From positions 1 to 64,000 of the forward strand of contig VIRH01000105.1 in the NCBI GenBank assembly GCA_008107755.1: DNA of 64,000 nt. The letters run 5' to 3'. The notes below the pieces were generated by a model. That model was not told the origin of the DNA. It saw only the letters and a program-made list of their open reading frames with translations, and ran no database searches. This document shows positions 26,651-40,144 of the stretch, one piece after another. The translations under genes and the position numbers were made by a program. The DNA is from Rhodobacterales bacterium. GTDB lineage: Bacteria; Pseudomonadota; Alphaproteobacteria; Rhizobiales; Stappiaceae. How positions within the stretch are numbered: the stretch's first letter is position 1; every line of letters starts with the position of its first letter.

Positions 26651-28507
26651 TCACTCCCCCTTCCCAACCTTGCGGTCATAAGCCGCCAGATCCACCAGCA
26701 AACAATGTTTCGGGCTGCGCTGGATCTTCACCGTCTTGGCACGCGGACCGCGCAACACGATGTCTTCCGGCGCCTGTTTCAGGGCAGTTGCCCAACCGCC
26801 CTCATAGAAATCGCTGTCCTGGAACACCTTGTTAAGGGCGGGGTGCTTTGCCGTGGGCACGGCCAGGTAAGGCCCCTCCCCGGCGCCGCTCGCCTTCACC
26901 AGGCCGAGGCCGGCCAGCGCCAGCCGGTCGCGCGCGCCGCCCAGGTCGAAAAGCCCGGACGTTCCCTTTTCGAATTCCAGCAACACCGTGCCGACCGTCA
27001 GTTTTTCGCCGCTGCGGTGCGCATCGATCGGAGCGGCCAGAAGATACTCCAGGCACTCCAGCCACTTCTCGACCTGTTCGGTGAATTCGCTTGCCAACGC
27101 GGCTTTCAGATGCTCGGCCAGGCGCGTCTGGTCGCTCACTTCCAGGCCGATTTCCTCCAGCGCGTCCTGGCCGACCACCAGCTCGGCCGCCGCAAGCAAC
27201 GTGCCGTAAGTGTCCATGGCACGGGCATCGCAGCCCGCCAGGTGCAGCGTCTTTTTCCAGTCCGGCAGGATCCGCTGGCCGAATTCCTCCCAGCCGTCCA
27301 TGATCTGCCGCAGGATCATGCGGCCGTCCGTATCGTGCACGACAGGTTCCTTGCCGTTGCCGAGCTCCAGCTTTTTCAGGTTCAGGATCGCCATGCGGGT
27401 CTTGTCCTGGACGCCCATGGGCGGGGGGATGATGGCCGAGAACATGAAGCAGTTTCGCGCCTGAAACGTCGTTCCCTCATGGTTCGCGCCGCCTCGCGAC
27501 ATGCGCCCGCCGGACGAAGCCAGGCGCGCCAGCTCGATGACGGCCATCGCCTTGGAAGATCCTTTCTTGGCTTCCAGTTCGTCCACCGTCACCGGCAGGC
27601 TGTCCTGTTTGACATGCTGGTAGATCCCGGCCGCCGTGGTATCGACCAGGGCGAACAGGGAATTGTGCAGGATCGCCTGCGTGATCTTGTGCAGCGTCGA
27701 TTTGCCGACGCCGGCGCCGCCCGTCGTGAAGATCGCTGGGCGCCAGGCCAGCGCGCCCCCCATATAGGCGCACACCAGCCAGCCCAGGAACAACACGGGA
27801 TCCAGATATGGCCGCTCCCAATTCCAGCTCTTGAGCGTCGTCAGGATCTCGACGGCTGGGCTTTCGTCTGTTGCAACGGCCGTTTCCCAGGGCCGGTCAA
27901 CGTCGGGCGCGCGGGTATAGAGATAGCCGCCCAGCTCGCCCGGTTCGGCCGCCTGCAGCTCGCCCTTGTCGTCCACCATCCAGAGATATTCGCCCGAGTT
28001 CCAGACGAAGCGGCCGTTCTCGGCCAGCCAGCCGCCACGGCCGCGCACCGCGCGCTCCGGATCGAACAGCCCGCGCCGCTTGCCTTCCTGGACGAGGCAG
28101 ATCATCGCCTTGTCGCGCTCGACGCGGTCCACGATCTGCGCCGTGATCTCGTTGCCCTCGGCGTCTTCCGTCTTGATTTTCTTGAAGGCGGGCCAGGCCC
28201 AATACATGTAGTTGACGAACGGCGCGAACAGGCTCGCCAACACGTGCATGTCCCATTTCTCGACCGCGTGCAGCTGGCCGCTGGCCGAGACAATGAACGT
28301 CGTGTTGCCGTCGTGGCCGAGCACCTTGGCCGGGCAGTTCGGCGGCATACGGTCCCAGGGCGCGCCCATCCACCGGCCGGGCCGGATCCCGTCGCGTTCC
28401 TCATTCGGATCGGGATCGGTCAGGTCCGCCCGTTCGGCCAGCCGCCGCTCCGCGTCCCTGAAATGCGCCTGGATCGCGGCGAGCCCCGTTTGCGTCTTCC
28501 GTGCCAT
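26651..28507 (-). CDS. Phage replicative helicase-like P-loop ATPase, 618 aa
   Basis: The central ATPase has Walker A GGAGVGKST at ~263-271 and an acidic VTVDELEAKK (~300) as Walker B. It is followed by a GANHEGTTFQARNCFMFSAI segment, which fits the sensor region of phage helicases related to the virulence-associated E and P4-primase helicase groups. The N-terminal ~240 residues are probably the primase-linked part and the C-terminus may bind DNA. It lies downstream of the primase gene in the same operon. It should unwind phage DNA in replication. Exact family is uncertain. Confidence 0.65.
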   Translation of the reverse strand: MARKTQTGLAAIQAHFRDAERRLAERADLTDPDPNEERDGIRPGRWMGAPWDRMPPNCPAKVLGHDGNTTFIVSASGQLHAVEKWDMHVLASLFAPFVNYMYWAWPAFKKIKTEDAEGNEITAQIVDRVERDKAMICLVQEGKRRGLFDPERAVRGRGGWLAENGRFVWNSGEYLWMVDDKGELQAAEPGELGGYLYTRAPDVDRPWETAVATDESPAVEILTTLKSWNWERPYLDPVLFLGWLVCAYMGGALAWRPAIFTTGGAGVGKSTLHKITQAILHNSLFALVDTTAAGIYQHVKQDSLPVTVDELEAKKGSSKAMAVIELARLASSGGRMSRGGANHEGTTFQARNCFMFSAIIPPPMGVQDKTRMAILNLKKLELGNGKEPVVHDTDGRMILRQIMDGWEEFGQRILPDWKKTLHLAGCDARAMDTYGTLLAAAELVVGQDALEEIGLEVSDQTRLAEHLKAALASEFTEQVEKWLECLEYLLAAPIDAHRSGEKLTVGTVLLEFEKGTSGLFDLGGARDRLALAGLGLVKASGAGEGPYLAVPTAKHPALNKVFQDSDFYEGGWATALKQAPEDIVLRGPRAKTVKIQRSPKHCLLVDLAAYDRKVGKGE

Positions 28508-28590
28508 TCACAATTCCGAAGTCAAAAAAAGCCGGGCACGAGAAACCAGAGCCCGGCAGGAAGTGCGGCAGTATGGCCGCACGGAGAGGA

Positions 28591-29283
28591 TCAGCGGCCT
28601 TTTGCCGTCTCGGTCAGGGCGAAAGGACCTTCCGTCAGTTCAAGTGTGGTTTCGTCCAGCGGCACCTTGCGCCGCATGGGCTCCGGCTTCCGCGCGGCGG
28701 CCGCTTCCACCGCCGTCAGGTAGGCGTCCGACTTGCGCAGCACGGTCCGGAAGATCTCGGCCGCATAGAGCCCCAGGGCGCGGTCCCACTCGAAGGGAAT
28801 GCGCATCAGCTCCAGATGTTTCAGCATGGCGGCCGCCGCACAGTCCGGGCTCTTGCGCACCAGGTAGCTGATCGAAACGCACTGCTCCAGCGTCAAGCCA
28901 AGGACCACTTCATAGTCCCAATTGCCGATCATCCACCTGACCGACCCCATCTGCGCGTTGTAGCCCGCCCAGATCGCCGGATCGTCGGGCTTTACGGTCC
29001 CCTTGAGGTCGGCCAGACCGAGGTCCATACCCCTCAAGGCGTAGGCTGTGGCATCGGCGGTATGGGTCGGATCGTTCACCACGGCAGCCACTCCCGAATA
29101 TCCCTCAGCGCCCTTGTCTGCCGCTGAATGCACATCGGCGGTGCCTGCCACGCCCAATGCGGCGTGATCATCCGGCTGTTCTGCGGCATGTTCACCGGCA
29201 CCAACGGCCTCGGCTGAGCCCTCTTTTTCCGGCTTCGCTTGATCTTCCGGTTCTGCATTTTTCGTCCCTTTCGCCATTCTCAT
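28591..29283 (-). CDS. Unknown protein in the replication operon, 230 aa
   Basis: The N-terminal ~75 residues are low-complexity and acidic (Ala, Glu, Asp). The C-terminal 150 residues are helical with GLADLKGTVKPDDPAIWAGY, MIGNWDYEVVLGLTLEQCVS and RKSDAYLTAVEAAAA. I do not recognise a family. The start overlaps the primase stop as ATGA and the helicase starts 84 bp after its stop, so a replication accessory role (loader or single-strand binding partner) is possible from context only. Confidence 0.55.
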   Translation of the reverse strand: MRMAKGTKNAEPEDQAKPEKEGSAEAVGAGEHAAEQPDDHAALGVAGTADVHSAADKGAEGYSGVAAVVNDPTHTADATAYALRGMDLGLADLKGTVKPDDPAIWAGYNAQMGSVRWMIGNWDYEVVLGLTLEQCVSISYLVRKSPDCAAAAMLKHLELMRIPFEWDRALGLYAAEIFRTVLRKSDAYLTAVEAAAARKPEPMRRKVPLDETTLELTEGPFALTETAKGR

Positions 29284-30443
29284 TCTCCCTTTCCAAGGTC
29301 GGCAAAATCGCTGCCGAGGTGCGACAGCATCAGGTCCAGAGGCTTGCCGGTGGCCTCAAGCGTGTTGAGCGCATTGCGCAATTGCCCCTGCGCATGGGCG
29401 TTGTTCCAGTCGTTCTCGCCGGCGACGATCACGCTGGAGACGAACGCAAAATCCACGGGCGCCGCGCCGATCCCGTTGATGGAACCGCAGGCCCACACAC
29501 GGGCCTGGGGCACGGCACGCGCGACGTGCAGCGCCGTTTCCCGGCCCTCGGTCAGGATCAACGGATGCGGCTCGGTGGAGTGCTCGGGCGGTTTGCCTTC
29601 CGGCCCGTGCGAGATACGCATGACAGCGCCCTTGTTCGGGCATTTCATCAGCCGCGGGCTTCGCGGCTTTCCGCTCGGCAGCGGCGGCAGCTTCGCCTTG
29701 TCCGGGATCAGCGGATCCAGGAAGGTCACATGATGATCGATGAATTGGCCGAGCGGCCCGCGCATGGCGGAAACGATGGCCGGAAAGCGCGGGCCTTCCT
29801 TCACCTTCCGGAACTGCCGGGTCGCCGGATCCCGCCGCCATTCGGCCAGCGGCCAGTATTCCACGTCGGGCAGATAGCGGAATGTCGTCTTGTCCAGATG
29901 CTCGATCCCGTCCAGGTCGATCCCGCGCGTCTCGATGTCGAACCGGCGGGCATGCATCTCGGCCGGGGAGCCGCTGCCGTAGACGGCACCGGACAGGAAA
30001 AGCTTTTCGGCCTCGCGCCGCTTGGCGGCTTCCTTGCGCTGTGCGGCCGCGTCGTTCTTCTCGGCCGCCACCTTCGCCTGGCGCTGGAAGTTGCGCCGGT
30101 CCTCGGCCGACATGGTGCTAAGGCCGAGAAAGTCCTTGGCGAGCCGCATCGCCCCGGCGAAATCCGTGCCGTGCACATACTGGAACAACGTGAAGATGTC
30201 GCCCTTGTCGCCGGAACGGAAGTCCTTCCAGGATCCGACGATCCCGGAGAGATAGACGTTCAGTTCGGGCGTCTGCCCGGGCTTGTCCATGACCGGATTG
30301 TTCGCTTTCCAGGTCCGGCCGATGCGCCGACCGTCCGGCAGCAGCTGCCGGCACACGTCCTCGACGCGTGCAACCAGCATCTGCTTGATTTCCAGAACCT
30401 CGGCGCGGCCACCGCCTTTATGCTTGAAATCAGCGCCACCCAT
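29280..30443 (-). CDS. Phage DNA primase with Toprim domain, 387 aa
   Basis: The N-terminal ~100 residues (RVEDVCRQLLPDGRRIGRTW, then GSWKDFRSGDKGDIFTLFQY) are usual in alphaproteobacterial phage primases. The Toprim domain is C-terminal: LILTEGRETALHVARAV (~296, catalytic Glu) and VIVAGENDWNNAHAQGQ (~348, acidic metal site in place of DxD). No zinc-finger cysteines are visible at the N-terminus, which is odd for a full primase. The start codon lies in a CCATGG palindrome. It opens the replication operon. Confidence 0.75.
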   Translation of the reverse strand: MGGADFKHKGGGRAEVLEIKQMLVARVEDVCRQLLPDGRRIGRTWKANNPVMDKPGQTPELNVYLSGIVGSWKDFRSGDKGDIFTLFQYVHGTDFAGAMRLAKDFLGLSTMSAEDRRNFQRQAKVAAEKNDAAAQRKEAAKRREAEKLFLSGAVYGSGSPAEMHARRFDIETRGIDLDGIEHLDKTTFRYLPDVEYWPLAEWRRDPATRQFRKVKEGPRFPAIVSAMRGPLGQFIDHHVTFLDPLIPDKAKLPPLPSGKPRSPRLMKCPNKGAVMRISHGPEGKPPEHSTEPHPLILTEGRETALHVARAVPQARVWACGSINGIGAAPVDFAFVSSVIVAGENDWNNAHAQGQLRNALNTLEATGKPLDLMLSHLGSDFADLGKGE

Positions 30444-30492
30444 GGCTTACCTCCACAGGTTGAGACGAGGAAGAAAACTCTATGGGAGCGAG

Positions 30493-31200
30493 GTGCGTTT
30501 GAAAGAAGATCGAAGCTGGGTCGTGCCGTTGGCATTCGTAACTTTTGGCGGCATTCTCTTCGCCGCCATTGGTCTGTTTTTGAAGCTCGAACACTTGCTG
30601 CTTTCCGATCGCGGCAGTGCTCTGGTCGCTTGGTTGACTTTGCTTTTCACCGTTTTCGCAGCACTTGCAGCCCTGATGGCCCTCGGGATCGCTCTTAATC
30701 AAATGAAAGACAGTCGGATACAAACCGAAATTGTTCAAAGAAAGGAACTTAGCGAGAAGATCTCCACAATAAAAAAAGCTGATCTCGCCCACCTTCAAAT
30801 TGAGCATAAGTTTAAAATTATTATTAATTGCATTTCTTCCGGCAACGAAGAACACTACCTTCCTGAAGAAGCCACACAAAAACTCTACGACGACCTTAAA
30901 GAACTTCGTATAAAGATAGTAGATTTTCAATACCGGGATACATTCAAGGAGATTTACCCGGAGTACGATATTTTTTACGCTTTCCAAGAAACGCTTGACG
31001 CACCAATGTCTTGGCTTCAAGAGAAAATCGATTCCGGGGGATTTAGCGAAACAAGCAAGGATGACAAGCATCACATAATAGAAAAAATGGAAGAGTATAC
31101 TATACTTAAAGATATAATTGATAAAAATATTGAAATAAACCTTATTAAGACCGAGGACAAACTTGACGAGATTACTCTGAGAGCACTCAGAGGAGGCTAA
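30493..31200 (+). CDS. Two-helix membrane protein of unknown function, 235 aa
   Basis: Two adjacent membrane segments (~10-35 and ~43-68: VPLAFVTFGGILFAAIGLF and ALVAWLTLLFTVFAALAALM) are followed by a helical cytoplasmic part rich in Lys, Glu and Ile, beginning with a likely coiled coil (QMKDSRIQTEIVQRKELSEK). The 3' two thirds are clearly AT-richer than the neighbours, a sign of recent transfer. I chose GTG 30493 because GGGAG lies 4 nt upstream; an in-frame ATG at the left overlaps the primase gene. It may be a lysogenic conversion gene, for example for superinfection exclusion. That is a guess from layout. Confidence 0.65.
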   Translation: MRLKEDRSWVVPLAFVTFGGILFAAIGLFLKLEHLLLSDRGSALVAWLTLLFTVFAALAALMALGIALNQMKDSRIQTEIVQRKELSEKISTIKKADLAHLQIEHKFKIIINCISSGNEEHYLPEEATQKLYDDLKELRIKIVDFQYRDTFKEIYPEYDIFYAFQETLDAPMSWLQEKIDSGGFSETSKDDKHHIIEKMEEYTILKDIIDKNIEINLIKTEDKLDEITLRALRGG

Positions 31201-31215
31201 ATTCGAGGAAATCAT

Positions 31216-31725
31216 CTAAAGCCCCCCTATGGCAGTCTCGACCAACCGAAACAGAGGCACGTCTTCCGGCTCGCAGGCGTCCTCGACGCGGCCCATGGCC
31301 AGCGACACGGCGGCGGGCGTCAGGCCGGTTGCGGCCGCAAGCTGTTTCTGGGGAACCCCGCACACCGTGTGCGCGATGTAGAGCGCCTTGGCGCGTAGGT
31401 CGGCTGCCCGCTTCCACACCGGATCGAAGGTCGCGCGGCGGCTCGGCTCCTGGGAAAGCACGTCCTCGATCTTTACCCCTTCGGACATGCACACGGAGAG
31501 AAGGCACAGGCGGTAGATCATGGCGGGCAAGGTCGTTGCCTCCCCCCGCTCATGTCTGGACAGGGCGATCTTCAGCTTGGCGATTGTGTCAGCTCGGGGA
31601 TGCTTCTTGCGCGCGACCAAATCGGAATAGTGGTTCGAATTGATCCCCGCGAGCGTAGTCAGCTTGTTCGCTGAAAGGCCGAGTTGCCGACGCTTGCGTT
31701 CGATCTGCCAAAACGCGTCCGTCAT
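31216..31725 (-). CDS. Phage regulator with N-terminal XRE-type HTH, 169 aa
   Basis: Residues ~5-60 form a Cro/CI-type helix-turn-helix (RRQLGLSANKLTTLAGINSN, then a conserved KKHPRADTIAKLKIAL end). Residues ~115-155 hold a second HTH-like unit (IAHTVCGVPQKQLAAATGLT then PAAVSLAMGRVED), which looks like the DNA-contacting part of replication initiators or MarR/sigma-type HTH proteins. It follows the 93-aa gene with a TGATG overlap. It may be a secondary repressor or early regulator of the phage. Confidence 0.65.
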   Translation of the reverse strand: MTDAFWQIERKRRQLGLSANKLTTLAGINSNHYSDLVARKKHPRADTIAKLKIALSRHERGEATTLPAMIYRLCLLSVCMSEGVKIEDVLSQEPSRRATFDPVWKRAADLRAKALYIAHTVCGVPQKQLAAATGLTPAAVSLAMGRVEDACEPEDVPLFRLVETAIGGL

Positions 31726-32006
31726 CAGAGTTCACCCGCCTGCTGGAGAGCAGTTACGCGTTTCGCTTCAATCACTTTCTTGTAGAGATGCAGCGTCGCC
31801 GGCGCATCGCCCCTGCGGCAGGTAATCGACAGGATGCGCGTCTCGCTGTTCCAGCCGGCTTCGCAGATCGTGACGCCCTTCCAGCCGTAGCTGGCGGCCA
31901 TCCAATTCACGTCGTCAAGCATGGATCGGTGGAACTCCGTCGGATCAATGTCGTCAGGCATCCGATCCGCGATGTTAATTTCTTCGACTGAAGATGGACC
32001 GGACAT
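31725..32006 (-). CDS. Unknown small phage protein, 93 aa
   Basis: An acidic N-terminus is followed by a beta-rich middle (VTICEAGWNSETRILSITC) and a basic helix. Its start overlaps the Cro-like stop and its stop overlaps the next start (TGATG), so it is part of a three-gene early operon transcribed from the cro-type promoter. No family recognised. Confidence 0.55.
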   Translation of the reverse strand: MSGPSSVEEINIADRMPDDIDPTEFHRSMLDDVNWMAASYGWKGVTICEAGWNSETRILSITCRRGDAPATLHLYKKVIEAKRVTALQQAGEL

Positions 32007-32236
32007 CAGTTAGCCTCGACAGCATCGGTTGCGAACCGCCTGTCCCAAGCTCTGAAAAGCTGCTCTGCGGTAACTTCACCACCAGTCGCAGCCGAGATCT
32101 TTCTGACGTTACGCGGTGAAGGGTTCCGGAGAAAATATTCCCAATTGATATACGTAGACAGAGAACAACCAATTCGTTTGGCGGCAGTTTTCTGAGTTAA
32201 ACACTTGCTTCTTCGCCAGATTTTCAAGGGATGCAT
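32006..32236 (-). CDS. Cro-like HTH protein, 76 aa
   Basis: Short basic protein with an HTH (TQKTAAKRIGCSLSTYINWE) at ~14-33, the size and layout of Cro-type regulators. It is the first gene of a leftward operon and faces the CI-like gene across a 116-bp gap with an inverted repeat, the standard arrangement of a lysis-lysogeny switch. Expected role: turn off the repressor side during lytic growth. Confidence 0.7.
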   Translation of the reverse strand: MHPLKIWRRSKCLTQKTAAKRIGCSLSTYINWEYFLRNPSPRNVRKISAATGGEVTAEQLFRAWDRRFATDAVEAN

Positions 32237-32285
32237 GCAGGCGCTCCTGGGAGGGAGGTGACGTATCTGCTTGCAAAAATAACTC

Positions 32286-32309
32286 GATTTGAGATATTTT
32301 AGTCAAATC
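32286..32309. promoter_or_regulatory. Operator candidate in the cro-cI gap
   Basis: GATTTGA and TCAAATC form a perfect 7-bp inverted repeat with a 10-nt spacer. A further ATTTGAGA half-site lies at 32321-32328. Both are in the AT-rich gap between the divergent regulators, so they are probably bound by one or both. Confidence 0.6.
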
Positions 32310-32352
32310 CAAATTTCCCTATTTGAGAAATAATTGTGGATTGGCTTCGTGT

Positions 32353-32709
32353 ATGCTGTATCTCGTAATGCTAAGTTTCCCGCACAAAAACAACAAATAT
32401 CCCATATATTTATGGGAATGGCGGAAGCACCGCGGCCTAACTGCAGTACAACTCGCAGAGCGCACAGGAATTACACAGGGCATCTTGTCGGCACTGGAAA
32501 CGGGATCGCGCCGAGCCAACATGGATCACCTGACAACAATAGCAAAAATACTCGACGTCTCAGTCGCCCAACTATTCCGCTCACCAGAAGACCCGCTTAA
32601 CGAAATCGAACTTGCTATTGTCAGACTAAATGAAGCGAAGAAGAAGCAAGCGGTTAAAGTATTGAGCGCATTCTTAGAACCAGACAGCTCCGAAGCCGGC
32701 TCTGGATAG
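32353..32709 (+). CDS. CI-like phage repressor (XRE family), 118 aa
   Basis: A classical XRE helix-turn-helix is at ~25-75: WEWRKHRGLTAVQLAERTGI, TQGILSALETGSRRANMDHL, then TIAKILDVSVAQLF. The protein lacks the C-terminal peptidase domain of lambda CI, so RecA-driven self-cleavage is unlikely. It is transcribed away from the cro-like gene. The start is uncertain: ATG 32353 or ATG 32368; neither has a good RBS, so the mRNA may be leaderless or regulated. It is the best candidate for the repressor that keeps the prophage silent. Confidence 0.65.
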   Translation: MLYLVMLSFPHKNNKYPIYLWEWRKHRGLTAVQLAERTGITQGILSALETGSRRANMDHLTTIAKILDVSVAQLFRSPEDPLNEIELAIVRLNEAKKKQAVKVLSAFLEPDSSEAGSG

Positions 32710-32732
32710 AAATGCAGAAATCGACTGACTTG

Positions 32733-33104
32733 CTAGTTTGAACACCAGTCAGCTTTATAGCTTGGCGTCCAGATCCGCGCCAATCCTTCTGAAGTGAGTA
32801 CGGACCCGACCGACCGTCCGTCCGCAAGAATCACCCAAACCAGCGGGCGACCAAATGCGTCCTCAGTTCCGGAATAGAAAACCTTCACCCCTGGCGTAGC
32901 CAACAGCTCCTTCATACGAGCGGTGGCCGCCCTCCCAAGCTCAAGCTCTTGCTGGCACTTCGGACGCCAGGTCTCCGGCGCATCATATCCGGAGATATTT
33001 GGGCGACCATCTCCCATATCTCGCATGTTCTCACCGTCGCATTTTATGGTATCGCCATCGACCGCAAGCAACGATGTGCAGATGATTACCACTTCGGTGT
33101 TCAT
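32733..33104 (-). CDS. Staphylococcal nuclease-like (SNase) protein, 123 aa
   Basis: Matches the thermonuclease fold: LAVDGDTIKCDG at the start, ISGYDAPET (the first catalytic Arg is usually near here), LGRAATARMKELLAT, EDAFGRPLVWVIL (second Arg motif, D-x-x-GR) and LTSEGLARIW at the end. There is no clear signal peptide, so it probably stays in the cytoplasm, unlike secreted relatives. ATG 33104 has a strong GGGGGGGAG site; a longer in-frame start at 33188 reads through repeat DNA. It converges with the CI-like gene. It may degrade DNA or take part in phage metabolism. Confidence 0.7.
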   Translation of the reverse strand: MNTEVVIICTSLLAVDGDTIKCDGENMRDMGDGRPNISGYDAPETWRPKCQQELELGRAATARMKELLATPGVKVFYSGTEDAFGRPLVWVILADGRSVGSVLTSEGLARIWTPSYKADWCSN

Positions 33105-33150
33105 GCTCCCCCCCAACTTAACAGCACCGCACGACCCTCCCAGCGCCGCG

Positions 33151-33320
33151 CACTTAACAAAACCATATGGCTTTTGCGACCGCCACACTTAATAAAACCA
33201 TACGGCTTTTGCGGCCGCCGCACTTAATAAAACCATACGGCTTTTGCGGCCGCCGCACTTAACAAAACCATACGGCTTTTGCACCCAACCGCACTTAACA
33301 AAGCCGTACGGTTTCGAAAC
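33151..33320 (+). repeat. Five 35-bp direct repeats
   Basis: Units start at 33151, 33186, 33221, 33256 and 33292 (spacing 35, 35, 35, 36). Each starts CACTTAAC or CACTTAAT and continues with AAAACCATACGGCTTTTGCG. Units 2 and 3 are identical; unit 5 diverges after 17 bases and holds a perfect CCGTACGG. A decayed unit occupies 33115-33150 next to the nuclease RBS. There are no unique spacers, so it is not a CRISPR. It resembles iterons of replication or partition loci or a multi-site operator. Confidence 0.85.
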
Positions 33321-33435
33321 ATCGCCACCAACAACATCACGCAATGCGAAATTTCGAACGTTTCGATATCGAAACAAAATAACGCTATTTGAAATATTTT
33401 TTAATTGACAAAAAATATCTCATTAAGGGATATTT
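33311..33435 (+). promoter_or_regulatory. Promoter and palindromes before the small-gene operon
   Basis: TTGACA at 33405-33410 and GGATAT at 33428-33433 are 17 bp apart, a good sigma-70-type promoter for the gene at 33468. An inverted repeat AAATATC/GATATTT (33413-33435) covers the -10 box and may be an operator. Upstream are GTTTCGAAAC (33311-33320) and the 16-bp perfect palindrome GTTTCGATATCGAAAC (33360-33375). Confidence 0.6.
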
Positions 33436-33467
33436 GCTCCGTCACCAACTCGACGGAGAGCGGCATT

Positions 33468-33788
33468 ATGCAAAGCACCACTGCACAGACCAGCCAGACA
33501 AGGGATCTGGTCATCGGACTGGACGAGCTGGCGAATGTATTGGGTAAAACGCCGGACTATCTGAAACGAAACTGGCTCAAGCTTCACCAGAAGCTTGGAA
33601 TGCCGCGAAAGCATCCCGCTGCGTTCATCTGGCCGCGTGGAGCCATCAACGTATGGCTGACCAGCCAGGCATATGTCGAAGCTGTTCCCGGAAACGACAA
33701 CACAGGCGACCTTCCGCCCTCGCTGCACGAAACCCGTGTCGCCGAACAGCGCGCTGCCCTCCATGCCAGCATGGGGGTAGGCGAATGA
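33468..33788 (+). CDS. Putative HTH protein (AlpA/Xis-like?), 106 aa
   Basis: ATG 33468 has GGAGAG at the right distance. The middle has IGLDELANVLGKTPDYLKRN, the winged HTH layout of small phage regulators such as AlpA or excisionases, then a PAAFIWPRGAINVWL segment. It is the first gene of a plus-strand run that ends with the integrase, so control of excision or of this operon is likely. Its own promoter has an inverted repeat it might bind. Confidence 0.5.
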   Translation: MQSTTAQTSQTRDLVIGLDELANVLGKTPDYLKRNWLKLHQKLGMPRKHPAAFIWPRGAINVWLTSQAYVEAVPGNDNTGDLPPSLHETRVAEQRAALHASMGVGE

Positions 33789-34072
33789 CCACCCTTCACA
33801 CTTTGGGACTGACCCCGTCGCACCTGACACCGGCCGCGCGGGATCTCGTTCTGGCGATCCGCAACAACTCCTGCGCCTGGAGAATCCGGCGCGGATGGTC
33901 GCCCAAGGGCCAACGCGGCAAGGGCTTTGCCGCTTCCACCGCAGACAAGCTGATCGGCCAGCAGCTCGCAGCCATCGCCCATTCCAAAGGGCCACCACGA
34001 CTGGTTCTTTCGGCGGCCGGCGAAGAAATGGCAAGGGCAATCCTCGCGAACCGGAAAGCGAAAGCCGCATGA
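33785..34072 (+). CDS. Unknown small phage protein, 95 aa
   Basis: Starts MTTLHTLGLTPSHLTPAARD with ATGA overlap to the gene before. Basic, helical, with WRIRRGWSPKGQRGKGFAAS in the middle, which may bind nucleic acid. No family recognised. It is co-translated with its neighbours. Confidence 0.5.
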   Translation: MTTLHTLGLTPSHLTPAARDLVLAIRNNSCAWRIRRGWSPKGQRGKGFAASTADKLIGQQLAAIAHSKGPPRLVLSAAGEEMARAILANRKAKAA

Positions 34073-34287
34073 GCACCGATCTTCTCCTGTTCACTCTTAT
34101 GCAGGCCCGTTTGCGCGCCCTCGGCAACGATCTGGAGTTCCCGCCGGAGCTTCGCGATCAGACCGCGCCGCTGCTCGCCCTTGCCGAAAGCAGCATACGC
34201 GAGGCGCGCACCCTCTACGGACGCATCAACGCTATTCACGACAACAACACAGCCAAACGGCTGAAAAGCCCTGGCGGCACACAATGA
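34069..34287 (+). CDS. Unknown small phage protein, 72 aa
   Basis: Helical, starts MSTDLLLFTLMQARLRALGN and contains a second amphipathic helix (LLALAESSIREARTLYGRIN). ATGA overlaps link it to the genes on both sides, which supports its reality. Function unknown. Confidence 0.5.
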   Translation: MSTDLLLFTLMQARLRALGNDLEFPPELRDQTAPLLALAESSIREARTLYGRINAIHDNNTAKRLKSPGGTQ

Positions 34288-34541
34288 GTGATTCATGGGG
34301 TGCTCTGGATCCGCAGAAGATCGCAGCCCTCTCTATGATGGCCGCCGCCGCGCTGGCGCTGCTTTCGGGTGCGGTCATTGCCCTTGCCATCCTCCTGCCC
34401 GAAAGGCGGGAGCGCCCGAAGCCGGATCCGTTTTTGCAGCCAGGATCCTGCGAAGGCTTGCGCGTCGGCCTTTGCCCGCCGCGTGCCCGGCACACACAAG
34501 AATCGGGAGGTGAAACCTCCCGGCCGGGCTCATCTCAATAA
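34284..34541 (+). CDS. Small membrane protein, 85 aa
   Basis: One strong membrane segment (IAALSMMAAAALALLSGAVI then ALAILLP) is followed by a basic, proline-rich tail. The start overlaps the stop of the previous gene as ATGA. It could be a spanin- or holin-like protein by size, but it is not near lysis genes. The C-terminal ~35 residues may be fortuitous reading into the spacer. Confidence 0.45.
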   Translation: MSDSWGALDPQKIAALSMMAAAALALLSGAVIALAILLPERRERPKPDPFLQPGSCEGLRVGLCPPRARHTQESGGETSRPGSSQ

Positions 34542-34603
34542 GACCAAGAAAATTCCAGGCTTCGGGCGCTCCCACAATTCTCGTGTCCGTTCAGGCCCAA
34601 CTC

Positions 34604-34637
34604 CACCGGAACCGCCCGCCAATGGTTCCGGTGTTTT
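34604..34637 (+). terminator. Intrinsic terminator after the small-gene operon
   Basis: CACCGGAACC and GGTTCCGGTG pair perfectly over 10 bp around a 10-nt loop and are followed by TTTT. It lies 63 bases past the last small gene and 64 bases before the next start. Confidence 0.7.
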
Positions 34638-34700
34638 CATGTCAACCTTCGGGCGGTCATTCGTATCGCATAGGCCGCCCGCTTTTGTTGGAGTACCGGA

Positions 34701-34922
34701 ATGAAGATCCTGCGGCGAAACAATGGCGATTGGCTCATGGAGCACAACGGCGCCGAAGCCCCTTATGACGTGGTCTGTCACGTGGAAGGAAAGTTCAGCG
34801 TGTTCGACATGGACGACGATATGGGAGACGATCCGGTTGCATCCCTTGAGAACAGGGAAACGGCCGAGCGCCTGACGCAGAAACATTTCGAGCGCACGGC
34901 CGAAGGAGGGCTCGGGCGATGA
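34701..34922 (+). CDS. Unknown protein coupled to integrase, 73 aa
   Basis: Starts MKILRRNNGDWLMEHNGAEA; acidic and beta-rich with a Asp-rich FDMDDDMGDDP run. Its stop overlaps the integrase start (ATGA), so the two are translated together. It could be a recombination directionality factor by position, but it lacks an HTH and is not basic, so I leave the function open. Confidence 0.55.
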   Translation: MKILRRNNGDWLMEHNGAEAPYDVVCHVEGKFSVFDMDDDMGDDPVASLENRETAERLTQKHFERTAEGGLGR

Positions 34923-36298
34923 AACGCAAGATCTCCATTCCCTACGTCGATTGGCGCGATGGCCGTCCGCGTTTCAAACCCGGAGCTCGTCTCCGTTCAC
35001 TTGGTTTTGTCAGTCAGGATTTGCGCCACCCGGAAAGCGGCAGGATCCCACCGGCCAAGTTGAGCCCCGGCACGAAAAACAGCGGAGCATGGTTCCAACC
35101 AGGCGAAGCCATGGACTGGTCAACCGCTTTCGCCAAAAGGATAGATGCGCTTCAGAATAAAGCCTCCGTGGAGAAAGCAGAAGACGCGCCGGCCAAGCGA
35201 AAAAACCGGCGCGCTCGTCCGGCTCCGGCGACCGCGCCCAAGGGCACCTACCCGCTCAGCCGGCTCAACGAGGATTGGCAGCGCTCAGACGAATTCCACG
35301 ATCTTGCCGAGAAATCCCGGAGGGACTACGCCAGCAAGATGCGCGCGATCGAACAGGACGCACCCGACGTTTGGGCGAGCGAGATCGACGCACTCGACCG
35401 GCAGATTATCAAGGCAATATACAAACGCGCCCGGGCCACGCGCGGCAACGCCATGGCCCGATCCATGATTCGCATTCTGTCCTCGGCCATCACCTGGGGC
35501 CTGGACGAAGGCAAATTCAAGATCGTGGAAGTCAACCCGGCACTCCGGCTCAAGATGAAATCTCTGGATCCGCGCGTCCGTTTCGCCAGCCGCTTCGAAC
35601 TGGAAACACTTGTCAGCGCGGCCGACATGGTCGGTCGCCCGGACATGGGCGACAGCTTCATTGCCGCCGTCTGGTCCGGCCAGCGCCAGGGCGACCGTCT
35701 GGCGCTGGAGTTCAAGTCGAAGCTCAAGACGCGGCTGGTCTGCAAGCAGTCCAAGACCGGCGCCATCGTCAACATGCCGATTGCTCCGGAGTTCGAACGC
35801 CGCCGCACGGCCGCGGCCGCGCGCAGGCTTGCCGCCGGCATCGTCAGCAATCATCTGATCCTTTTTGAAAAGACCTGGCGGCCATTCCAGCAGGACACCT
35901 ACCGCCACTATTTCAGCGAGATCCGAAAGATCGCGGCTTTCGGGCTTTGGAAGCTCAAGGACGGTACGCTCCGCTGTCCTGTCAACGAACGGTTCAAGCA
36001 CCTGAACCACGTCACGGCAGGGCCGGTGCCCGCACCAAATCAAGGCACATGTCTGGTCGAGCCGAGCCGCTCACTTGCCGACTTTCAGGAAATGGATTTC
36101 CGCGACACGGCCGTGACCTGGCTGGCCCTCTCGGGCGCGACCGTTCCGGAGATCTGCGCTGTCACCGGCCATTCCGTCCAATCCGCAACGCAGGTGCTCA
36201 GGCACTACCTGGCAATGCACCCAGACATGGCCGACAGCGCCATTTCCAAAATGGTCACGTGGTACGAGAAGGACGGTGAAACCGAGATAGGTTTTTAG
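34919..36298 (+). CDS. int: Tyrosine recombinase (phage integrase), 459 aa
   Basis: The N-terminal ~100 residues are a variable arm-binding region; a SAM-like core-binding domain follows (~110-210). Catalytic residues: Arg in WSGQRQGDRLALE (~253), Arg in DFRDTAVTWLALSG (~395; here FRDT replaces the common LRHT/LRGT), GHS (~415), and the Tyr nucleophile in LRHYLAMH (~430). It would insert and excise the phage at tRNA-Lys 750 bp downstream. It is oriented toward the attachment site, as usual. No frameshift is seen. Confidence 0.88.
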   Translation: MKRKISIPYVDWRDGRPRFKPGARLRSLGFVSQDLRHPESGRIPPAKLSPGTKNSGAWFQPGEAMDWSTAFAKRIDALQNKASVEKAEDAPAKRKNRRARPAPATAPKGTYPLSRLNEDWQRSDEFHDLAEKSRRDYASKMRAIEQDAPDVWASEIDALDRQIIKAIYKRARATRGNAMARSMIRILSSAITWGLDEGKFKIVEVNPALRLKMKSLDPRVRFASRFELETLVSAADMVGRPDMGDSFIAAVWSGQRQGDRLALEFKSKLKTRLVCKQSKTGAIVNMPIAPEFERRRTAAAARRLAAGIVSNHLILFEKTWRPFQQDTYRHYFSEIRKIAAFGLWKLKDGTLRCPVNERFKHLNHVTAGPVPAPNQGTCLVEPSRSLADFQEMDFRDTAVTWLALSGATVPEICAVTGHSVQSATQVLRHYLAMHPDMADSAISKMVTWYEKDGETEIGF

Positions 36299-36613
36299 AG
36301 ACGGGTCAGGCTGGAGATCAACAAATCGCAAAACCAGGCGATCGAGGTGGCTGCGGTTTAGCACCTGTTAATTTTGACGATAGATTCCCTGTCCGCAGAC
36401 ACCTGTTGATATCGCAAAGGTTGTAGGGGGCCGAGGGGCAACCCAAGAAACGGGACCCGCCCAATGCCCGCTCAAGAGTGCCTGCCGACACGGACAGGCG
36501 TAGCGTAGGATTTGCTCTGACGGTTTCCCCAACCGCACCGCTCACCCGTTATAGCCCGGCCGCCCTGGCTGGGAGGAGATTGGAGCGGGTCCTGGCAACA
36601 AAGGACCCAGACA
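36299..36613 (+). other. Gap after integrase
   Basis: No convincing gene, terminator or repeat. Contains scattered GC-rich hairpins only. It separates int from a small downstream gene. Confidence 0.35.
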
Positions 36614-36826
36614 ATGCCAACCCTTTATGATGCCTACCGCCTGACTCAAGAGACGACGGAACCCCTCGCAGCCTTTCTCGACCTTCTGGCATGCTTCGCC
36701 AATGAGGGAGACAACGAGAAGTGGCTGCGGAACAGGTACTTTGTTGCACGGATGGCACTGGAATACAGCACCCGCCTCCGCGATCTTCAAGCGGATCTCG
36801 ACAGTTTGGCGATCAGCGAAAAGTGA
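36614..36826 (+). CDS. Small helical protein near attachment site, 70 aa
   Basis: Helical protein MPTLYDAYRLTQETTEPLAA with acidic composition. An AAAGGA lies 10 nt before the start. Codon use fits the rest of the phage. No family recognised. It is the last phage gene before the tRNA. Could be a shadow reading, but the RBS and sequence quality favour a gene. Confidence 0.45.
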   Translation: MPTLYDAYRLTQETTEPLAAFLDLLACFANEGDNEKWLRNRYFVARMALEYSTRLRDLQADLDSLAISEK

Positions 36827-36939
36827 CCTGCTGCCTCCCCGCATGCCCGTCTAGTGATCATGCTGCCCGCATGACCGACGCCACGCAAATTTGCTGGCGT
36901 TCAGAGTCCTAATTCAGACAGAACAGGAACAGAACAAAG

Positions 36940-36976
36940 CGTGCGACGTCGCACGGTCGTCGCACGCCGTCGCACG
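36940..36976. repeat. Phased GTCGCACG repeats beside the attachment site
   Basis: GTCGCACG occurs at 36948, 36959 and 36969, spaced 11 and 10 bp, preceded by its complement CGTGCGAC at 36940 which makes GTGCGACGTCGCAC a perfect palindrome with the first copy. Spacing of one helical turn suggests cooperative protein binding, as for integrase arm sites or excisionase sites. Confidence 0.65.
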
Positions 36977-37047
36977 TTCACGTCCTGTTCACGGCGCACA
37001 AACTGCGCTTTAGCGCAATTTCATCTTAGATTTCAAAGGGAAGTTGA

Positions 37048-37123
<76 letters not shown>

Positions 37124-37532
37124 GAGCGACAGGGCCGCGAGAAACGCGCGGCGCGTCGAATTCGGCGGGTATATAGCGACTGGGCGCCGGGCGCAATGGG
37201 GTATCTTGATATTTTTTCACCTCGTCGCACATATGCTTACCGGCATTGGCAAATTCCCGATATCGAAGGAAAGAAGATGTTGCGCGGGCGGTCTTTCGGG
37301 AAATTTTCAGAAAGATCGGACTTCTTTCGCGCAATATTCGGATTTTAGGGTTGACCGGGGAAAACCGCCTGACTAGTGTGCCGCGCACCGGATGCGGATG
37401 GACATGACGCTTCCGGAACGGACTTGCAAATGCCTGTCGCGCCGAAGGGCCATGCGGGCGATGCTCAAAGTCCGGTACCATGTCCCACACGGGCCAAGGC
37501 GGCCTGCAGTATCAAAGGACCGGGTCGGCAAG
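37124..37532 (+). other. Gap between tRNA-Lys and the ilv leader
   Basis: No gene supported. It should contain the promoter of the tRNA (near 37124-37170, minus strand) and that of ilvBN (plus strand). I see no clear boxes. Confidence 0.35.
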
Positions 37533-37586
37533 ATGATGTCGCTCATTCTAGTAGTGGTAGGAACGCGCGCCCTCCAGGCGGGATAG
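37533..37586 (+). CDS. ilv leader peptide, 17 aa
   Basis: The short frame MMSLILVVVGTRALQAG starts after AAAGGA and contains a run Leu-Ile-Leu-Val-Val-Val, including CTA and GTA codons that are rare in this high-GC genome. A T-run terminator follows at 37615-37640, then ilvB. This is the layout of transcription attenuation controlled by branched-chain aminoacyl-tRNA supply: fast translation favours termination, stalling at the Leu/Ile/Val codons favours readthrough into ilvBN. Confidence 0.85.
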   Translation: MMSLILVVVGTRALQAG

Positions 37587-37614
37587 TCCCGCTCGGACAG
37601 GATGGCGCGCGATG

Positions 37615-37640
37615 AAGGCTCCCCCAGGGGCCTTTTTTTT
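37615..37640 (+). terminator. Attenuator of ilvBN
   Basis: AAGGCTCCCC pairs with GGGGCCTT (CT bulge) and is followed by TTTTTTTT. It lies 28 bases after the leader peptide stop and 131 bases before the ilvB start. Confidence 0.8.
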
Positions 37641-37771
37641 ATTGCTGCCGTCCGGACCGAACGCCCTCCCCCCCGGACCTTTGAAACCGCATGCCGCCCG
37701 GCGGACAGAACAACGATCACGAGAGCCAAGGCCTGACCCCTCAGGCCGACGAATGCAAGGACGAGACGAAA

Positions 37772-39547
37772 ATGACACGGGAAATGACCGGCGCCGAAAT
37801 GGTCATCCAGGCGCTGAAAGACCAGGGAGTTGATACCATCTTCGGCTACCCGGGCGGTGCAGTGCTTCCCATCTATGACGAGATCATCCAGCAGGAGGGG
37901 CTGGAGCATATTCTCGTACGCCACGAACAGGGCGCAGGACACGCCGCCGAAGGCTATGCCCGCTCCACCGGCAAGCCCGGCGTTGCCCTGGTGACGTCCG
38001 GTCCCGGCGCGACCAACATGGTCACCGCGCTGACCGACGCCATGCTGGATTCCATTCCGCTGGTTTGCATTTCCGGGCAGGTCCCGACCCATCTCATCGG
38101 CAACGATGCCTTTCAGGAGTGCGACACGGTCGGCATCACCCGGCCGTGCACCAAGCACAACTGGCTGGTCCGTGACGTCGACGATCTGGCGCGCGTCCTG
38201 CACGAGGCATTTTATGTCGCGACCTCCGGCCGTCCGGGCCCGGTCGTCGTCGACATTCCGAAGGACGTCCAGTTCGCCACCGGCACCTACCAGGGCCCGA
38301 CGCCGAACCCGGCCGCCGCGCATAAGAGCTACCGTCCGCAGATCAAGGGCGATGCCGCCTCGATCCGCATGGCCGCGGAAATGATGGCAGCGGCCAAGAA
38401 GCCGGTGCTTTATACCGGCGGCGGCGTCATCAACTCCGGCCCGCAGGCCTGCCAACTGCTGCGCGAACTGGTCTCGCTGACCGGATTTCCGATCACCTCG
38501 ACGCTGATGGGCCTCGGCGCCTATCCGGCCTCCGGCGACAATTGGCTTGGCATGCTGGGCATGCACGGCACGTATGAAGCCAACATGACCATGCACGACT
38601 GCGACCTGATGGTCTGCATCGGCGCGCGCTTCGACGACCGTATCACCGGCCGCACCGACGCGTTCTCGCCCGGCTCGCGCAAGATCCATATCGACATCGA
38701 CCCGTCTTCCATCAACAAGACGATCAATGTCGATCTGCCGATCATCGGCGATGTCGCCCACGTGCTGGAAGATCTGGTCCGGATCTGGCGCTCCTCCTCC
38801 ATGAAACCGGATGCTGCCGCGCTGAAGGACTGGTGGAAGGAGATCGACCAGTGGCGGGCCCGCAATTCGCTGGCCTACAAGCCGAACAACGACGTCATCA
38901 TGCCGCAATACGCGATCCAGCGGCTCTATGACCTGACCAAGCACCGCAAGACCTTCATTTCCACGGAGGTCGGTCAGCACCAGATGTGGGCGGCGCAGTT
39001 CTATGGCTTCGAGGAGCCGAACCACTGGCTGACGTCCGGCGGTCTCGGCACCATGGGCTACGGCCTGCCGGCGGCCATCGGCGCGCAGGTCGCGCACCGC
39101 GATGCGCTGTGCGTCGATATTGCCGGCGATGCCTCGATCCTGATGAACATTCAGGAAATGTCGACCGCTGTTCAGTTCGGCCTGCCCGTCAAGGTGTTCA
39201 TCCTGAACAACCAGTACATGGGCATGGTCCGCCAGTGGCAGCAGCTGCTGCACGGCAACCGGCTGTCGCATTCCTACACCGAGAGCCTGCCCGATTTCGT
39301 CAAGCTGGCCGAGGCCTATGGCGGTGTCGGCTTCCGCGTGGAGAAGCCGGGCGACCTGGATGGCGCCATCGAGGAAATGATCGCAGTCGACAAGCCGGTC
39401 CTGTTCGACTGCCGCGTCGCGAACCTCACCAACTGCTTCCCGATGATCCCCTCGGGCAAGGCACATAACGAAATGCTGCTGCCGGATGAAGCCAACGACG
39501 AGGCGGTCGCCAATGCGATCAGCGCCGAAGGCAAGTCCCTCGTTTGA
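37772..39547 (+). CDS. ilvB: Acetolactate synthase large subunit, 591 aa
   Basis: Catalytic subunit of acetohydroxyacid synthase, which makes acetolactate and acetohydroxybutyrate for valine, leucine and isoleucine. The ThDP-dependent layout is complete: GYPGGAVLPIYDE near the start, the catalytic Glu in HEQGAGHAAEGYARS (~residue 50), a central FAD-linked domain, and the C-terminal ThDP/Mg motif GDASILMNIQEMSTAV to NNQYMGMVRQWQ. ATG 37772 has AAGGA upstream; it aligns with the usual start (MTREMTGAEM). The in-frame start at 37691 would add 27 unusual residues. Followed by ilvN. Confidence 0.95.
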   Translation: MTREMTGAEMVIQALKDQGVDTIFGYPGGAVLPIYDEIIQQEGLEHILVRHEQGAGHAAEGYARSTGKPGVALVTSGPGATNMVTALTDAMLDSIPLVCISGQVPTHLIGNDAFQECDTVGITRPCTKHNWLVRDVDDLARVLHEAFYVATSGRPGPVVVDIPKDVQFATGTYQGPTPNPAAAHKSYRPQIKGDAASIRMAAEMMAAAKKPVLYTGGGVINSGPQACQLLRELVSLTGFPITSTLMGLGAYPASGDNWLGMLGMHGTYEANMTMHDCDLMVCIGARFDDRITGRTDAFSPGSRKIHIDIDPSSINKTINVDLPIIGDVAHVLEDLVRIWRSSSMKPDAAALKDWWKEIDQWRARNSLAYKPNNDVIMPQYAIQRLYDLTKHRKTFISTEVGQHQMWAAQFYGFEEPNHWLTSGGLGTMGYGLPAAIGAQVAHRDALCVDIAGDASILMNIQEMSTAVQFGLPVKVFILNNQYMGMVRQWQQLLHGNRLSHSYTESLPDFVKLAEAYGGVGFRVEKPGDLDGAIEEMIAVDKPVLFDCRVANLTNCFPMIPSGKAHNEMLLPDEANDEAVANAISAEGKSLV

Positions 39548-39571
39548 GCCCGGGCATAAGGACCAATTGAA

Positions 39572-40144
39572 ATGAACGCACAGAACGTTGATGCGCCTTC
39601 CGCCTACTTCCTGGCCGAAGTCAGCAACGAGATCGAAACCCACACGCTGTCGCTCCTTGTCGACAACGAGCCCGGTGTCCTGGCCCGTGTCATCGGCCTT
39701 TTCTCCGGCCGGGGCTACAACATCGACAGCCTGACCGTATCCGAGACGGAGCACGAGAAGCACCTCTCGCGCATCACCATCGTGACGACGGGAACGCCGA
39801 TGATCATCGAGCAGATCCGCCACCAGCTCGACAGGCTGGTGCCCGTTCACCGGGTAACCGACCTGACCGTCCGCGCCAGACGCGCCAATCAGGACAAGCC
39901 GCTGGAACGCGAGCTTGCCCTGGTCAAGGTGACCGGCACCGGCGAAAAGCGCCTGGAAGCCCTCCGCCTGGGCGATGCCTTCCGAGCCACCGTCATCGAC
40001 GCGACGACCGAACATTTCGTGTTCGAGATCACCGGCCGTACGTCGAAGATCGAGCAGTTCATCACCATCATGAAGCCGCTCGGCCTCGTCGAAGTTTCCC
40101 GCACCGGCGTCGCCGCCCTCCAGCGCGGCCCGGAAGGTCTCTGA
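39572..40144 (+). CDS. ilvN: Acetolactate synthase small subunit, 190 aa
   Basis: Regulatory subunit of acetohydroxyacid synthase. The N-terminal ACT domain has THTLSLLVDNEPGVLARVIG and FSGRGYNIDSLTVSETEHE, the valine-binding surface; the C-terminal domain has RLGDAFRATVIDATTEHFVF and ITGRTSKIEQFITIM. Length is slightly above the usual ~165 aa because of an N-terminal extension. It lies 24 bp after ilvB in one operon under the leader attenuator. Confidence 0.95.
   Translation: MNAQNVDAPSAYFLAEVSNEIETHTLSLLVDNEPGVLARVIGLFSGRGYNIDSLTVSETEHEKHLSRITIVTTGTPMIIEQIRHQLDRLVPVHRVTDLTVRARRANQDKPLERELALVKVTGTGEKRLEALRLGDAFRATVIDATTEHFVFEITGRTSKIEQFITIMKPLGLVEVSRTGVAALQRGPEGL

What the first reader, a model, noticed from the sequence alone, without database searches (positions are those of the whole stretch)
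33151..33320. Five 35-bp direct repeats next to the lysogeny region
Exact spacing (35, 35, 35, 36) and two identical units point to selection or recent expansion. Units have a fixed CACTTAA start and a CCATACGG core. They are non-coding and lie in a gene-free strip between the nuclease and the int-side operon, like an iteron origin, a partition site or a many-site operator.
Basis: seen in the sequence. Interest (0 to 1): 0.75.

Follow-up and report, generated by a model that had tools for sequence, protein, structure and literature searches.

The report
Phage repeat array with swappable core
A bacterial virus dormant in a marine bacterium carries a short row of repeated DNA docking sites whose core differs from virus to virus, apparently in step with the docking surface of one two-headed viral protein, so it is probably the place where the virus starts copying its DNA.

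Summary
In detail: five units start at 33151, 33186, 33221, 33256 and 33292, and units 2 and 3 are identical. Each unit is CACTTAA + 1 nt + a 16-bp near-palindrome + a linker. Twelve contigs (this one included) carry 2 to 6 such units beside a small xis-like gene, always in the same orientation. The heptamer is conserved; the palindrome is rewritten from phage to phage. In two near-identical prophages (L014/L027) the palindrome is swapped, and the homolog of window 31219-31725 has 15 of its 20 differences in 37 residues around its N-terminal recognition helix; the repressor head, the Cro-like recognition helix and the xis-like DNA-binding part are unchanged. That protein is predicted to be an XRE head joined to a DnaA-domain-IV-like fold, and sits upstream of a primase and a helicase resembling SCC/SaPI helicases. 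Best explanation: iterons of the phage replication origin, bound by this protein. That it binds the array is inferred (about 0.75); origin function is less certain (about 0.55). The covariation rests on a few close phages. Main rival: a many-site control element of xis/int. Nothing was tested at the bench. New variant of a known kind.

The parts
33151..33174 (+). unit 1: CACTTAA + C + 16-bp dyad (33159-33174)
33186..33209 (+). unit 2: CACTTAA + T + dyad (33194-33209)
33221..33244 (+). unit 3, identical to unit 2 over 35 bp; dyad 33229-33244
33256..33279 (+). unit 4; dyad 33264-33279
33292..33315 (+). unit 5, dyad variant AAAGCCGTACGGTTTC; dyad 33300-33315
33366..33425 (.). AT-rich stretch (82% AT), second least stable 60-bp region of window 1501-37040, 50 bp past the array; candidate unwinding element, but it overlaps the xis promoter
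33360..33375 (.). separate perfect palindrome GTTTCGATATCGAAAC between array and promoter; similar imperfect site in L005 and L009
   Evidence: read
33405..33434 (+). sigma-70-like promoter of the xis-like gene (TTGACA-18-GATATT)
   Evidence: consensus match only
33468..33788 (+). xis-like small protein (called excisionase-like from its position; function inferred), conserved next to the array
   Evidence: no Pfam or PHROG match in the window protein, weak HTH_17 match in 2 of 5 homologs
31216..31725 (-). candidate array-binding protein: N-terminal XRE/HTH_3 domain (about 1-60) and C-terminal DnaA-domain-IV-like fold (64-167)
29280..30443 (-). Toprim primase
   Evidence: PF13362, PF23639; phrog_510
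26651..28507 (-). replicative helicase; predicted fold closest to SCCmec Cch, with PriRep1 and the SaPI5 primase-helicase high in the lists
32323..32709 (+). XRE regulator (reg; likely start 32368); in L005 and L009 its stop codon lies inside the first unit
32006..32236 (-). Cro-like HTH_3 regulator
32733..33104 (-). SNase-type nuclease between reg and the array in this prophage; in L005 and L009 the array follows reg directly
34919..36298 (+). integrase (phrog_1 integrase family)
37048..37123 (-). tRNA-Lys next to the integrase; presumed attachment gene (attL not found in the window)

Best explanation
The array is a set of iterons, most likely the replication origin of this prophage. Shown by sequence: a conserved, asymmetric heptamer (CACTTAA), one base, then a 16-bp dyad whose sequence changes between phages; fixed orientation relative to the xis-like gene; one such place in the DNA held for each phage. 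Inferred with fair support: the dyad is bound by a dimer of the XRE head of the early protein at 31216-31725. Inferred with weaker support: the heptamer is read by that protein's DnaA-domain-IV-like half, or else by the C-terminal part of the helicase. Inferred from gene context: once early genes are switched on, the protein loads on the units, opens the neighbouring DNA and recruits the phage helicase and primase. Changing the XRE recognition helix together with the dyads would give each phage a private origin.
For: Same unit geometry in 12 contigs: the window and L005, L007, L009, L012, L014, L027, L029, L044, L056, L057, L065, the last with a CGGTTGA variant; in 12 of 12 the heptamer comes first on the xis-sense strand. 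Dyad-blind scans (analysed in 126, 128): of 131 loci held, 121 have a strict CACTTAA pair; 9 have summed symmetry 11 or more of 16, of which 8 lie in this phage group and 1 does not (L169); 0 of the other 112 have hth, xis or helicase homologs. L014 vs L027: the early HTH protein differs at 15 of 37 residues (23-59) against 5 of 142 elsewhere (Fisher 2.8e-8); CI residues 1-63 and the xis DNA-binding part are identical, and the Cro-like protein has no change in its recognition helix. L014 vs L056: 15/37 against 11/141; L027 vs L056: 19/37 against 10/141. Dyad distance follows distance in residues 29-39 after controlling for primase, partial r 0.42, p 0.0045. Fold: residues 64-167 match DnaA domain IV entries with Z 10.3-11.7, rmsd 2.2-3.2, 91-95 residues; profile against ten DnaA C-terminal domains E 5e-4, with other HTH alignments at 0.31 and 0.037. 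Helicase fold: SCCmec Cch Z 13.9 over 422 residues; PriRep1 and SaPI5 primase-helicase among the top Foldseek rows. No second unit at 17 of 24 or better in the held DNA of 11 phages. Prim+hel relatives in which no HTH or xis homolog was found (L066-L068) show no early-region array.
Against: No experiment. The helix-dyad correlation weakens with AF2 helix limits (30-37: partial 0.30, p 0.023) and vanishes when L027 and L056 are removed (0.12, p 0.24), so it rests on the close group. The middle and C-terminal part of the protein also correlates with the dyad (partial on primase 0.26, p 0.047; on the helix 0.27, p 0.038). Window vs L009 has different dyads without concentrated change (13/37 against 40/131, p 0.69). 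In L014/L027 the neighbouring gene (homolog of 31725-32006) also differs at 10 of 94 residues, spread along it, and is not excluded as a reader. The least stable DNA near the array is just downstream in 6 of 12 (4-92 bp) but also promoter DNA in some, overlaps the array in 2 and lies upstream in 4 (71-499 bp). In 6 of 12 the units lie inside the 5' end of the xis reading frame. L027 has no helicase match in held DNA and may be a defective prophage. Pfam Bac_DnaA_C does not match at E 0.01, and the tool warns that Z under about 13 can be common for helical folds. The array is 1.4 kb from the HTH gene, unlike ori-lambda. L015, L017 and L019 have distant HTH homologs but no array was detected.
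Confidence: 0.55

Rival explanations
1. Many-site operator: the same early HTH protein binds the array to switch the xis/int genes (activate or block) at induction; replication starts elsewhere.
For: The array always flanks or overlaps the xis-like gene in the 12 contigs. The protein's N-terminal half matches transcription-regulator families. In the window, L005, L007 and L009 a TTGACA promoter-like site lies 90-180 bp past the array.
Against: Position relative to the gene start is not conserved: in 6 of 12 the units are inside the xis reading frame. No unit at 17 of 24 or better elsewhere in the held DNA of 11 phages; in the window three weaker dyad matches (13 of 16) lie at 4132, 11200 and 24250, away from the early promoters. 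DnaA-IV-like half and primase/helicase neighbours.
Confidence: 0.26
2. Operator or stoperator array of the lysogeny repressor (reg, or CI in relatives).
For: In L005 and L009 the array begins at the stop codon of reg; reg is an XRE protein and its helix also varies.
Against: An S24-type CI takes reg's place in L012 and L014, yet arrays persist. L014 and L027 CI proteins are identical in residues 1-63, yet dyads differ. Other palindromes sit at the promoters (read).
Confidence: 0.06
3. Partition (centromere-like) site of a plasmid-prophage.
For: Tandem dyads bound by a dimeric HTH protein resemble centromere arrays in outline (recalled).
Against: The element has an integrase beside a tRNA; no ParA/ParB match among the 10 early proteins scanned.
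Confidence: 0.03
4. RNA-level element: serial hairpins or terminators insulating reg from xis/int.
For: The transcript of the window array folds better than 200 shuffles, z -3.5.
Against: Terminator-like sites in 32200-33600: 3 found, 1.8 expected. Dyads carry A-C mismatches in the window. The change in step with a DNA-recognition helix is not explained.
Confidence: 0.04

Closest known systems
Phage lambda O protein and ori-lambda iterons (PMC7466680, passages read)
   Same: Tandem units, each an imperfect inverted repeat, 4 in lambda and 6 in the Stx phages described, beside an AT-rich tract, bound by the O initiator encoded with another replication gene.
   Different: Lambda iterons are 19-bp imperfect inverted repeats inside the O gene; here each unit adds a conserved asymmetric heptamer, the array lies by xis, and the candidate protein is XRE + DnaA-IV-like.
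SaPI Rep and SCCmec Cch2 helicase-origin systems (PMC7581432, passages and one section read)
   Same: Helicase of similar predicted fold (nearest entry is Cch, which that paper calls a relative of SaPIBov1 Rep); short repeats as origin. The SCCmec putative origin repeat, 5' TACCACTTAAT, contains CACTTAA.
   Different: There the repeats lie just downstream of the helicase gene and the helicase C-terminal domain binds them (SaPI Rep, Cch2); here the array is about 4.6 kb from the helicase gene and changes with another protein. The shared heptamer may be chance; not tested.
DnaA domain IV and DnaA boxes
   Same: Predicted fold of residues 64-167; an asymmetric conserved box.
   Different: No AAA+ domain in this 169-aa protein; CACTTAA/TTAAGTG is not the DnaA box TTATNCACA (recalled); no Pfam DnaA match.
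KorA/TrfB of IncP plasmids
   Same: Weak sequence match of the C-terminal HTH.
   Different: Below the Pfam cut-off; KorA has a single HTH and binds a 12-bp palindrome (recalled).

Membership tests
iteron-type phage replication origin | tandem, regularly spaced repeat units | tested here: met
iteron-type phage replication origin | cognate initiator encoded by the same replicon | tested here: inconclusive
   site and recognition helix change together in the L014/L027/L056 group; not significant without L027 and L056
iteron-type phage replication origin | adjacent AT-rich unwinding tract | tested here: inconclusive
   least stable 60 bp within 500 bp: downstream 4-92 bp in 6 of 12, overlapping in 2, upstream 71-499 bp in 4; promoter DNA confounds
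iteron-type phage replication origin | supports autonomous replication | not testable with these tools
   needs a plasmid assay
lambda O / ori-lambda | iterons inside the initiator gene | tested here: not met
   array 33151-33315, HTH gene 31216-31725
SaPI/SCC self-loading helicase origin | iterons directly downstream of the helicase gene | tested here: not met
   helicase 26651-28507, array 33151-33315
SaPI/SCC self-loading helicase origin | helicase of the Cch/PriRep fold | tested here: inconclusive
   best row SCCmec Cch, Z 13.9 over 422 residues, rmsd 6.1, but an MCM homolog follows at 12.6; model pLDDT 78
DnaA domain IV (Bac_DnaA_C) | Pfam PF08299 match | tested here: not met
   not among the families matched up to E 0.01 by 13 homologs
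DnaA domain IV (Bac_DnaA_C) | domain IV fold | tested here: met
   top six rows Z 10.3-11.7 over 64-169, DnaA entries plus the origin-unwinding complex 8btg; next row 8.9 and over the other domain; predicted model, and Z under 13 is not conclusive for helical folds
lysogeny repressor operator | site changes with the repressor's recognition helix | tested here: not met
   CI residues 1-63 identical in L014 and L027, dyads different
partition site | ParA/ParB-type genes nearby | tested here: inconclusive
   none among 10 proteins scanned; small int-side ORFs not scanned

The most novel reading that the evidence does not exclude
A new class of phage initiator: a two-headed protein in which an XRE repressor-type head and a DnaA-domain-IV-like head read a composite iteron. 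The conserved heptamer keeps the replication machinery common, and the freely exchangeable dyad gives each phage a private origin (a replication-compatibility type) that can be switched by changing a short stretch around one helix.
Probability: 0.37. Interest if true: 0.78.

Novelty: new variant of a known kind. Interest (0 to 1): 0.6.

Why it matters
It links a repeat array to one named protein and to a specificity switch seen between near-identical phages. If it is an origin, it is a compact, testable initiator-origin pair from a phage group without a close relative among the 50,697 phage records searched (HTH protein: no match; helicase: 23 records, all below 60% identity). The matched sites and helices could serve as orthogonal origins or DNA-binding pairs, and would show how related prophages avoid interfering with each other's replication.

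Tried and rejected
A direct repeat of the tRNA end as attL: no exact 12-mer pointed to one in the window. More arrays of the CC..GG kind in genomes: 1 stretch, a Roseibium MAG, in the genome collection (one genome for each of 84,980 species); 2 of 87 family genomes by DNA, own included; 1 of 385 class genomes by the wider pattern, the own one. PDB and Pfam for the helicase by sequence: nothing useful. HTH protein among phage records: no match. Rfam in 24000-40000: only the tRNA and an sRNA family at 37.5 kb. Terminators and RNA folding: not convincing. AT-rich unwinding tract as decisive evidence: dropped, since its side and distance differ; the distances in my notebook entry 7 were measured from the wrong edge of the array and are corrected. 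Mantel statistic as independent proof: dropped, since it depends on the close group. The Fisher value printed leaves out L169 and is not used. Ten of the 96 loci have no strict CACTTAA pair and are outside the counts; one of them, L033, is the L007 contig of this phage group. L013 has a looser variant (CTACCGGTAG three times, no CACTTAA) and was left out of the 12 and of the statistics; L065 is in the 12 but not in the statistics, because no HTH gene was found before the contig ends. L006 showed no array, HTH or xis match, its held DNA ending about 3 kb upstream of the primase. L016 likewise holds only about 2 kb beyond its HTH gene. Odds: after checking, confidence in the best explanation went from 0.57 to 0.55, in the binding step from 0.8 to 0.75, in the operator rival from 0.25 to 0.26 and in the novel case from 0.38 to 0.37, because the neighbouring gene and the middle/C-terminal part also vary. 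Literature: listings only; none of the listed titles and abstract openings describes such an array or an XRE + DnaA-IV protein, and one search listed nothing for Roseibium or Labrenzia phages.

Full report
What is there. The window carries the right-hand part of a tailed-phage prophage, podovirus-like in my reading (terminase, head-tail adaptor, major head protein and tail proteins on the minus strand), ending at an integrase beside tRNA-Lys. The left end was not found in the window, which starts at the first base of its contig. The array lies between an SNase-type nuclease gene and an xis-like gene. The new point is the inner structure: CACTTAA, one base, then a 16-bp near-palindrome, then a variable linker of about 11 nt.

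Relatives. By DNA, 2 of 87 family genomes match, the own one and G059; a pattern scan of the genome collection found one stretch, on a Roseibium MAG contig whose length equals that of the G059 contig. Through the helicase and the HTH protein, more distant phages were found in viral contigs. Reading their xis regions gave 12 contigs with the same geometry, the window included. Dyads: window AAAACCATACGGCTTT; L005 AAACCCACGTGGGTTT; L009 AAATCCGAACGGGTTT; L007 AAAGTACCGGTATTTT; L012 AAATGTCCGGACATTT; L029 GAAAGTCCGGACATTT; L027 AAAAGTCCGGACATTT; L014 AAAGTAGCGCCACTTT; L056 AAAGTCCCGGGACTTC; L057 AAAAGTCATGACATTG; L044 AAACGCCTATGCGTTT; L065 AAAGCGTGTCCGCTTT. Most are one unit of several, which differ slightly within a phage; the L005 one is composed by eye from its six units. 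Copy number runs from 2 to 6 and spacing is 27, 35-36, 37/47, 48 or 70. The heptamer is CACTTAA in 10 of 12, CACTTGA/CACTCAA in L007 and CGGTTGA in L065. It comes first on the xis-sense strand in 12 of 12.

A control for selection. Of the 131 loci held, 121 had a pair under the strict heptamer. Nine loci had summed symmetry of 11 or more out of 16. Eight of these are in this phage group, each with xis and, on the same contig, the HTH protein; the ninth, L169, has no homolog. None of the other 112 loci has a homolog of the HTH protein, xis or helicase in its held DNA.

Which protein reads the dyad. L014 and L027 are close to identical in much of the early region (integrase, CI and a 170-aa protein at 96%, primase at 97%), yet their dyads differ at 8 of the 10 inner positions. 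The CI proteins are identical in residues 1-63, the Cro-like proteins differ at 10 of 101 residues but not in the recognition helix, and the xis-like proteins are the same in the DNA-binding part, differing mainly in the N-terminal part that the array itself encodes. The homolog of window 31219-31725 differs at 15 of 37 residues in 23-59 and at 5 of 142 elsewhere (Fisher 2.8e-8). L014/L056 (15/37 against 11/141) and L027/L056 (19/37 against 10/141) show the same; window/L009 does not (13/37 against 40/131). L012 and L029, whose dyads differ at one inner position, share the recognition motif SEKHYRRL; L027, with nearly the same dyad, has SERNYRRL on a protein only 58-59% identical to theirs. 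Over 11 phages and 55 pairs, dyad distance correlates with distance in residues 29-39 (rho 0.51, p 0.001; partial on primase 0.42, p 0.0045). On the same partial test xis (0.15, p 0.13), integrase (0.00) and the C-terminal HTH (-0.01) add nothing clear, but the whole middle and C-terminal part does (0.26, p 0.047). None of this is independent of the close group: with helix limits 30-37 the partial value is 0.30 (p 0.023), and without L027 and L056 it is 0.12 (p 0.24). In L014/L027 the gene just upstream of the HTH gene (homolog of 31725-32006) also differs at 10 of 94 residues, spread along it; it has no Pfam match and cannot be excluded. L027 shows no helicase match in its held DNA, so it may be a defective prophage and its helicase could not be compared.

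What the protein is. Pfam finds HTH_3 in 12 of 13 homologs. The predicted model (mean pLDDT 82.7, pTM 0.58) is all helical. Residues 1-60 match XRE/Cro proteins with Z up to 8.9, and residues 64-169 match DnaA domain IV with Z 10.3-11.7 in the top six rows, including DnaA domain IV bound to a DnaA box; the tool warns that such Z values are not conclusive for helical folds. Foldseek also ranks DnaA first, at a weak E of 0.01. By sequence, the C-terminal half against ten DnaA domains from the order gives E 5e-4 with probability 31%; two unrelated HTH alignments give 0.31 and 0.037. The PDB profile search lists KorA (E 0.0075) above DnaA (E 0.14). So the fold is probable and the homology suggestive.

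Why an origin. The protein is encoded upstream of a Toprim primase and a helicase whose predicted fold is nearest to SCCmec Cch (Z 13.9, 422 residues, rmsd 6.1; an MCM homolog follows at 12.6, the SaPI5 primase-helicase at 11.6), with PriRep1 first in Foldseek. PMC7581432 (passages and one section read) describes SaPI Rep and Cch2 as initiator helicases that bind short origin repeats through their C-terminal domains, and Cch as a relative of SaPIBov1 Rep. No second unit at 17 of 24 or better was found in the held DNA of 11 phages; in the window three dyad matches at 13 of 16 lie at 4132, 11200 and 24250. That fits a cis-acting start site better than a regulon. Relatives of primase and helicase in which no HTH or xis homolog was found at E 1e-5 (L066, L067, and L068, a 7.7-kb contig) have no early-region array. 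In lambda-like phages each iteron is an imperfect inverted repeat and the iterons lie next to an AT-rich tract (PMC7466680, passages read). Here the least stable 60 bp within 500 bp of the array is just downstream in 6 of 12 (4-92 bp), overlaps it in 2 and is upstream in 4 (71-499 bp), and in the window it is also promoter DNA. In 6 of 12 the array lies inside the 5' end of xis, and L015, L017 and L019, with distant HTH homologs, show no array. A control element for xis/int is therefore the main rival.

What reads the heptamer is open: the DnaA-IV-like half, or the helicase C-terminal part. The SCCmec origin repeat contains the same CACTTAA, and the heptamer also occurs once or twice in the late-gene leader of the window and 7 relatives. 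Both may be chance; neither was tested.

Verdict. A real, conserved cis element, with one good candidate binder, most likely the phage origin. New variant of a known kind: composite iterons with a conserved heptamer and an exchangeable dyad, and an XRE + DnaA-IV-like candidate initiator.

Noticed in passing
window 20020-20420 (minus-strand sense): Conserved late-operon leader upstream of the terminase: long inverted repeat ending at CACTTAA, then GGGGGAGCGTGTGAGG-like DNA and several CGGTTAGAAG-type direct repeats; the CACTTAA context was compared in the window and 7 relatives. Looks like a cos site with small-terminase repeats (inference).
   Followed up: partly
window 20532-26537: Type III restriction-modification pair (methylase and ResIII-type subunit) inside the prophage between late and early genes.
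   Followed up: partly
window 30283-31200; L005 5248-8152: ORF of unknown function between the HTH gene and the primase, matched by several diverged copies in a row in L005; no Pfam or PADLOC match.
   Followed up: no
window 33360-33375 and the promoters of L005, L007, L009, L012, L014: A second palindrome between array and promoter, and, by eye, separate phage-specific palindromic sites at the divergent and xis promoters (e.g. GTCACCTATAGTAAC in L005), likely the repressor operators.
   Followed up: no
L012 1694-1747, L014 4382-4442, L027 9489-9548: The units are read in frame as short peptide repeats (ALNK...) at the N-terminus of the xis-like protein, so a DNA site appears to be tolerated inside a coding sequence.
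   Followed up: partly
window 40275-40759: A 162-bp tandem repeat (2.9 copies) in the chromosomal flank.
   Followed up: no
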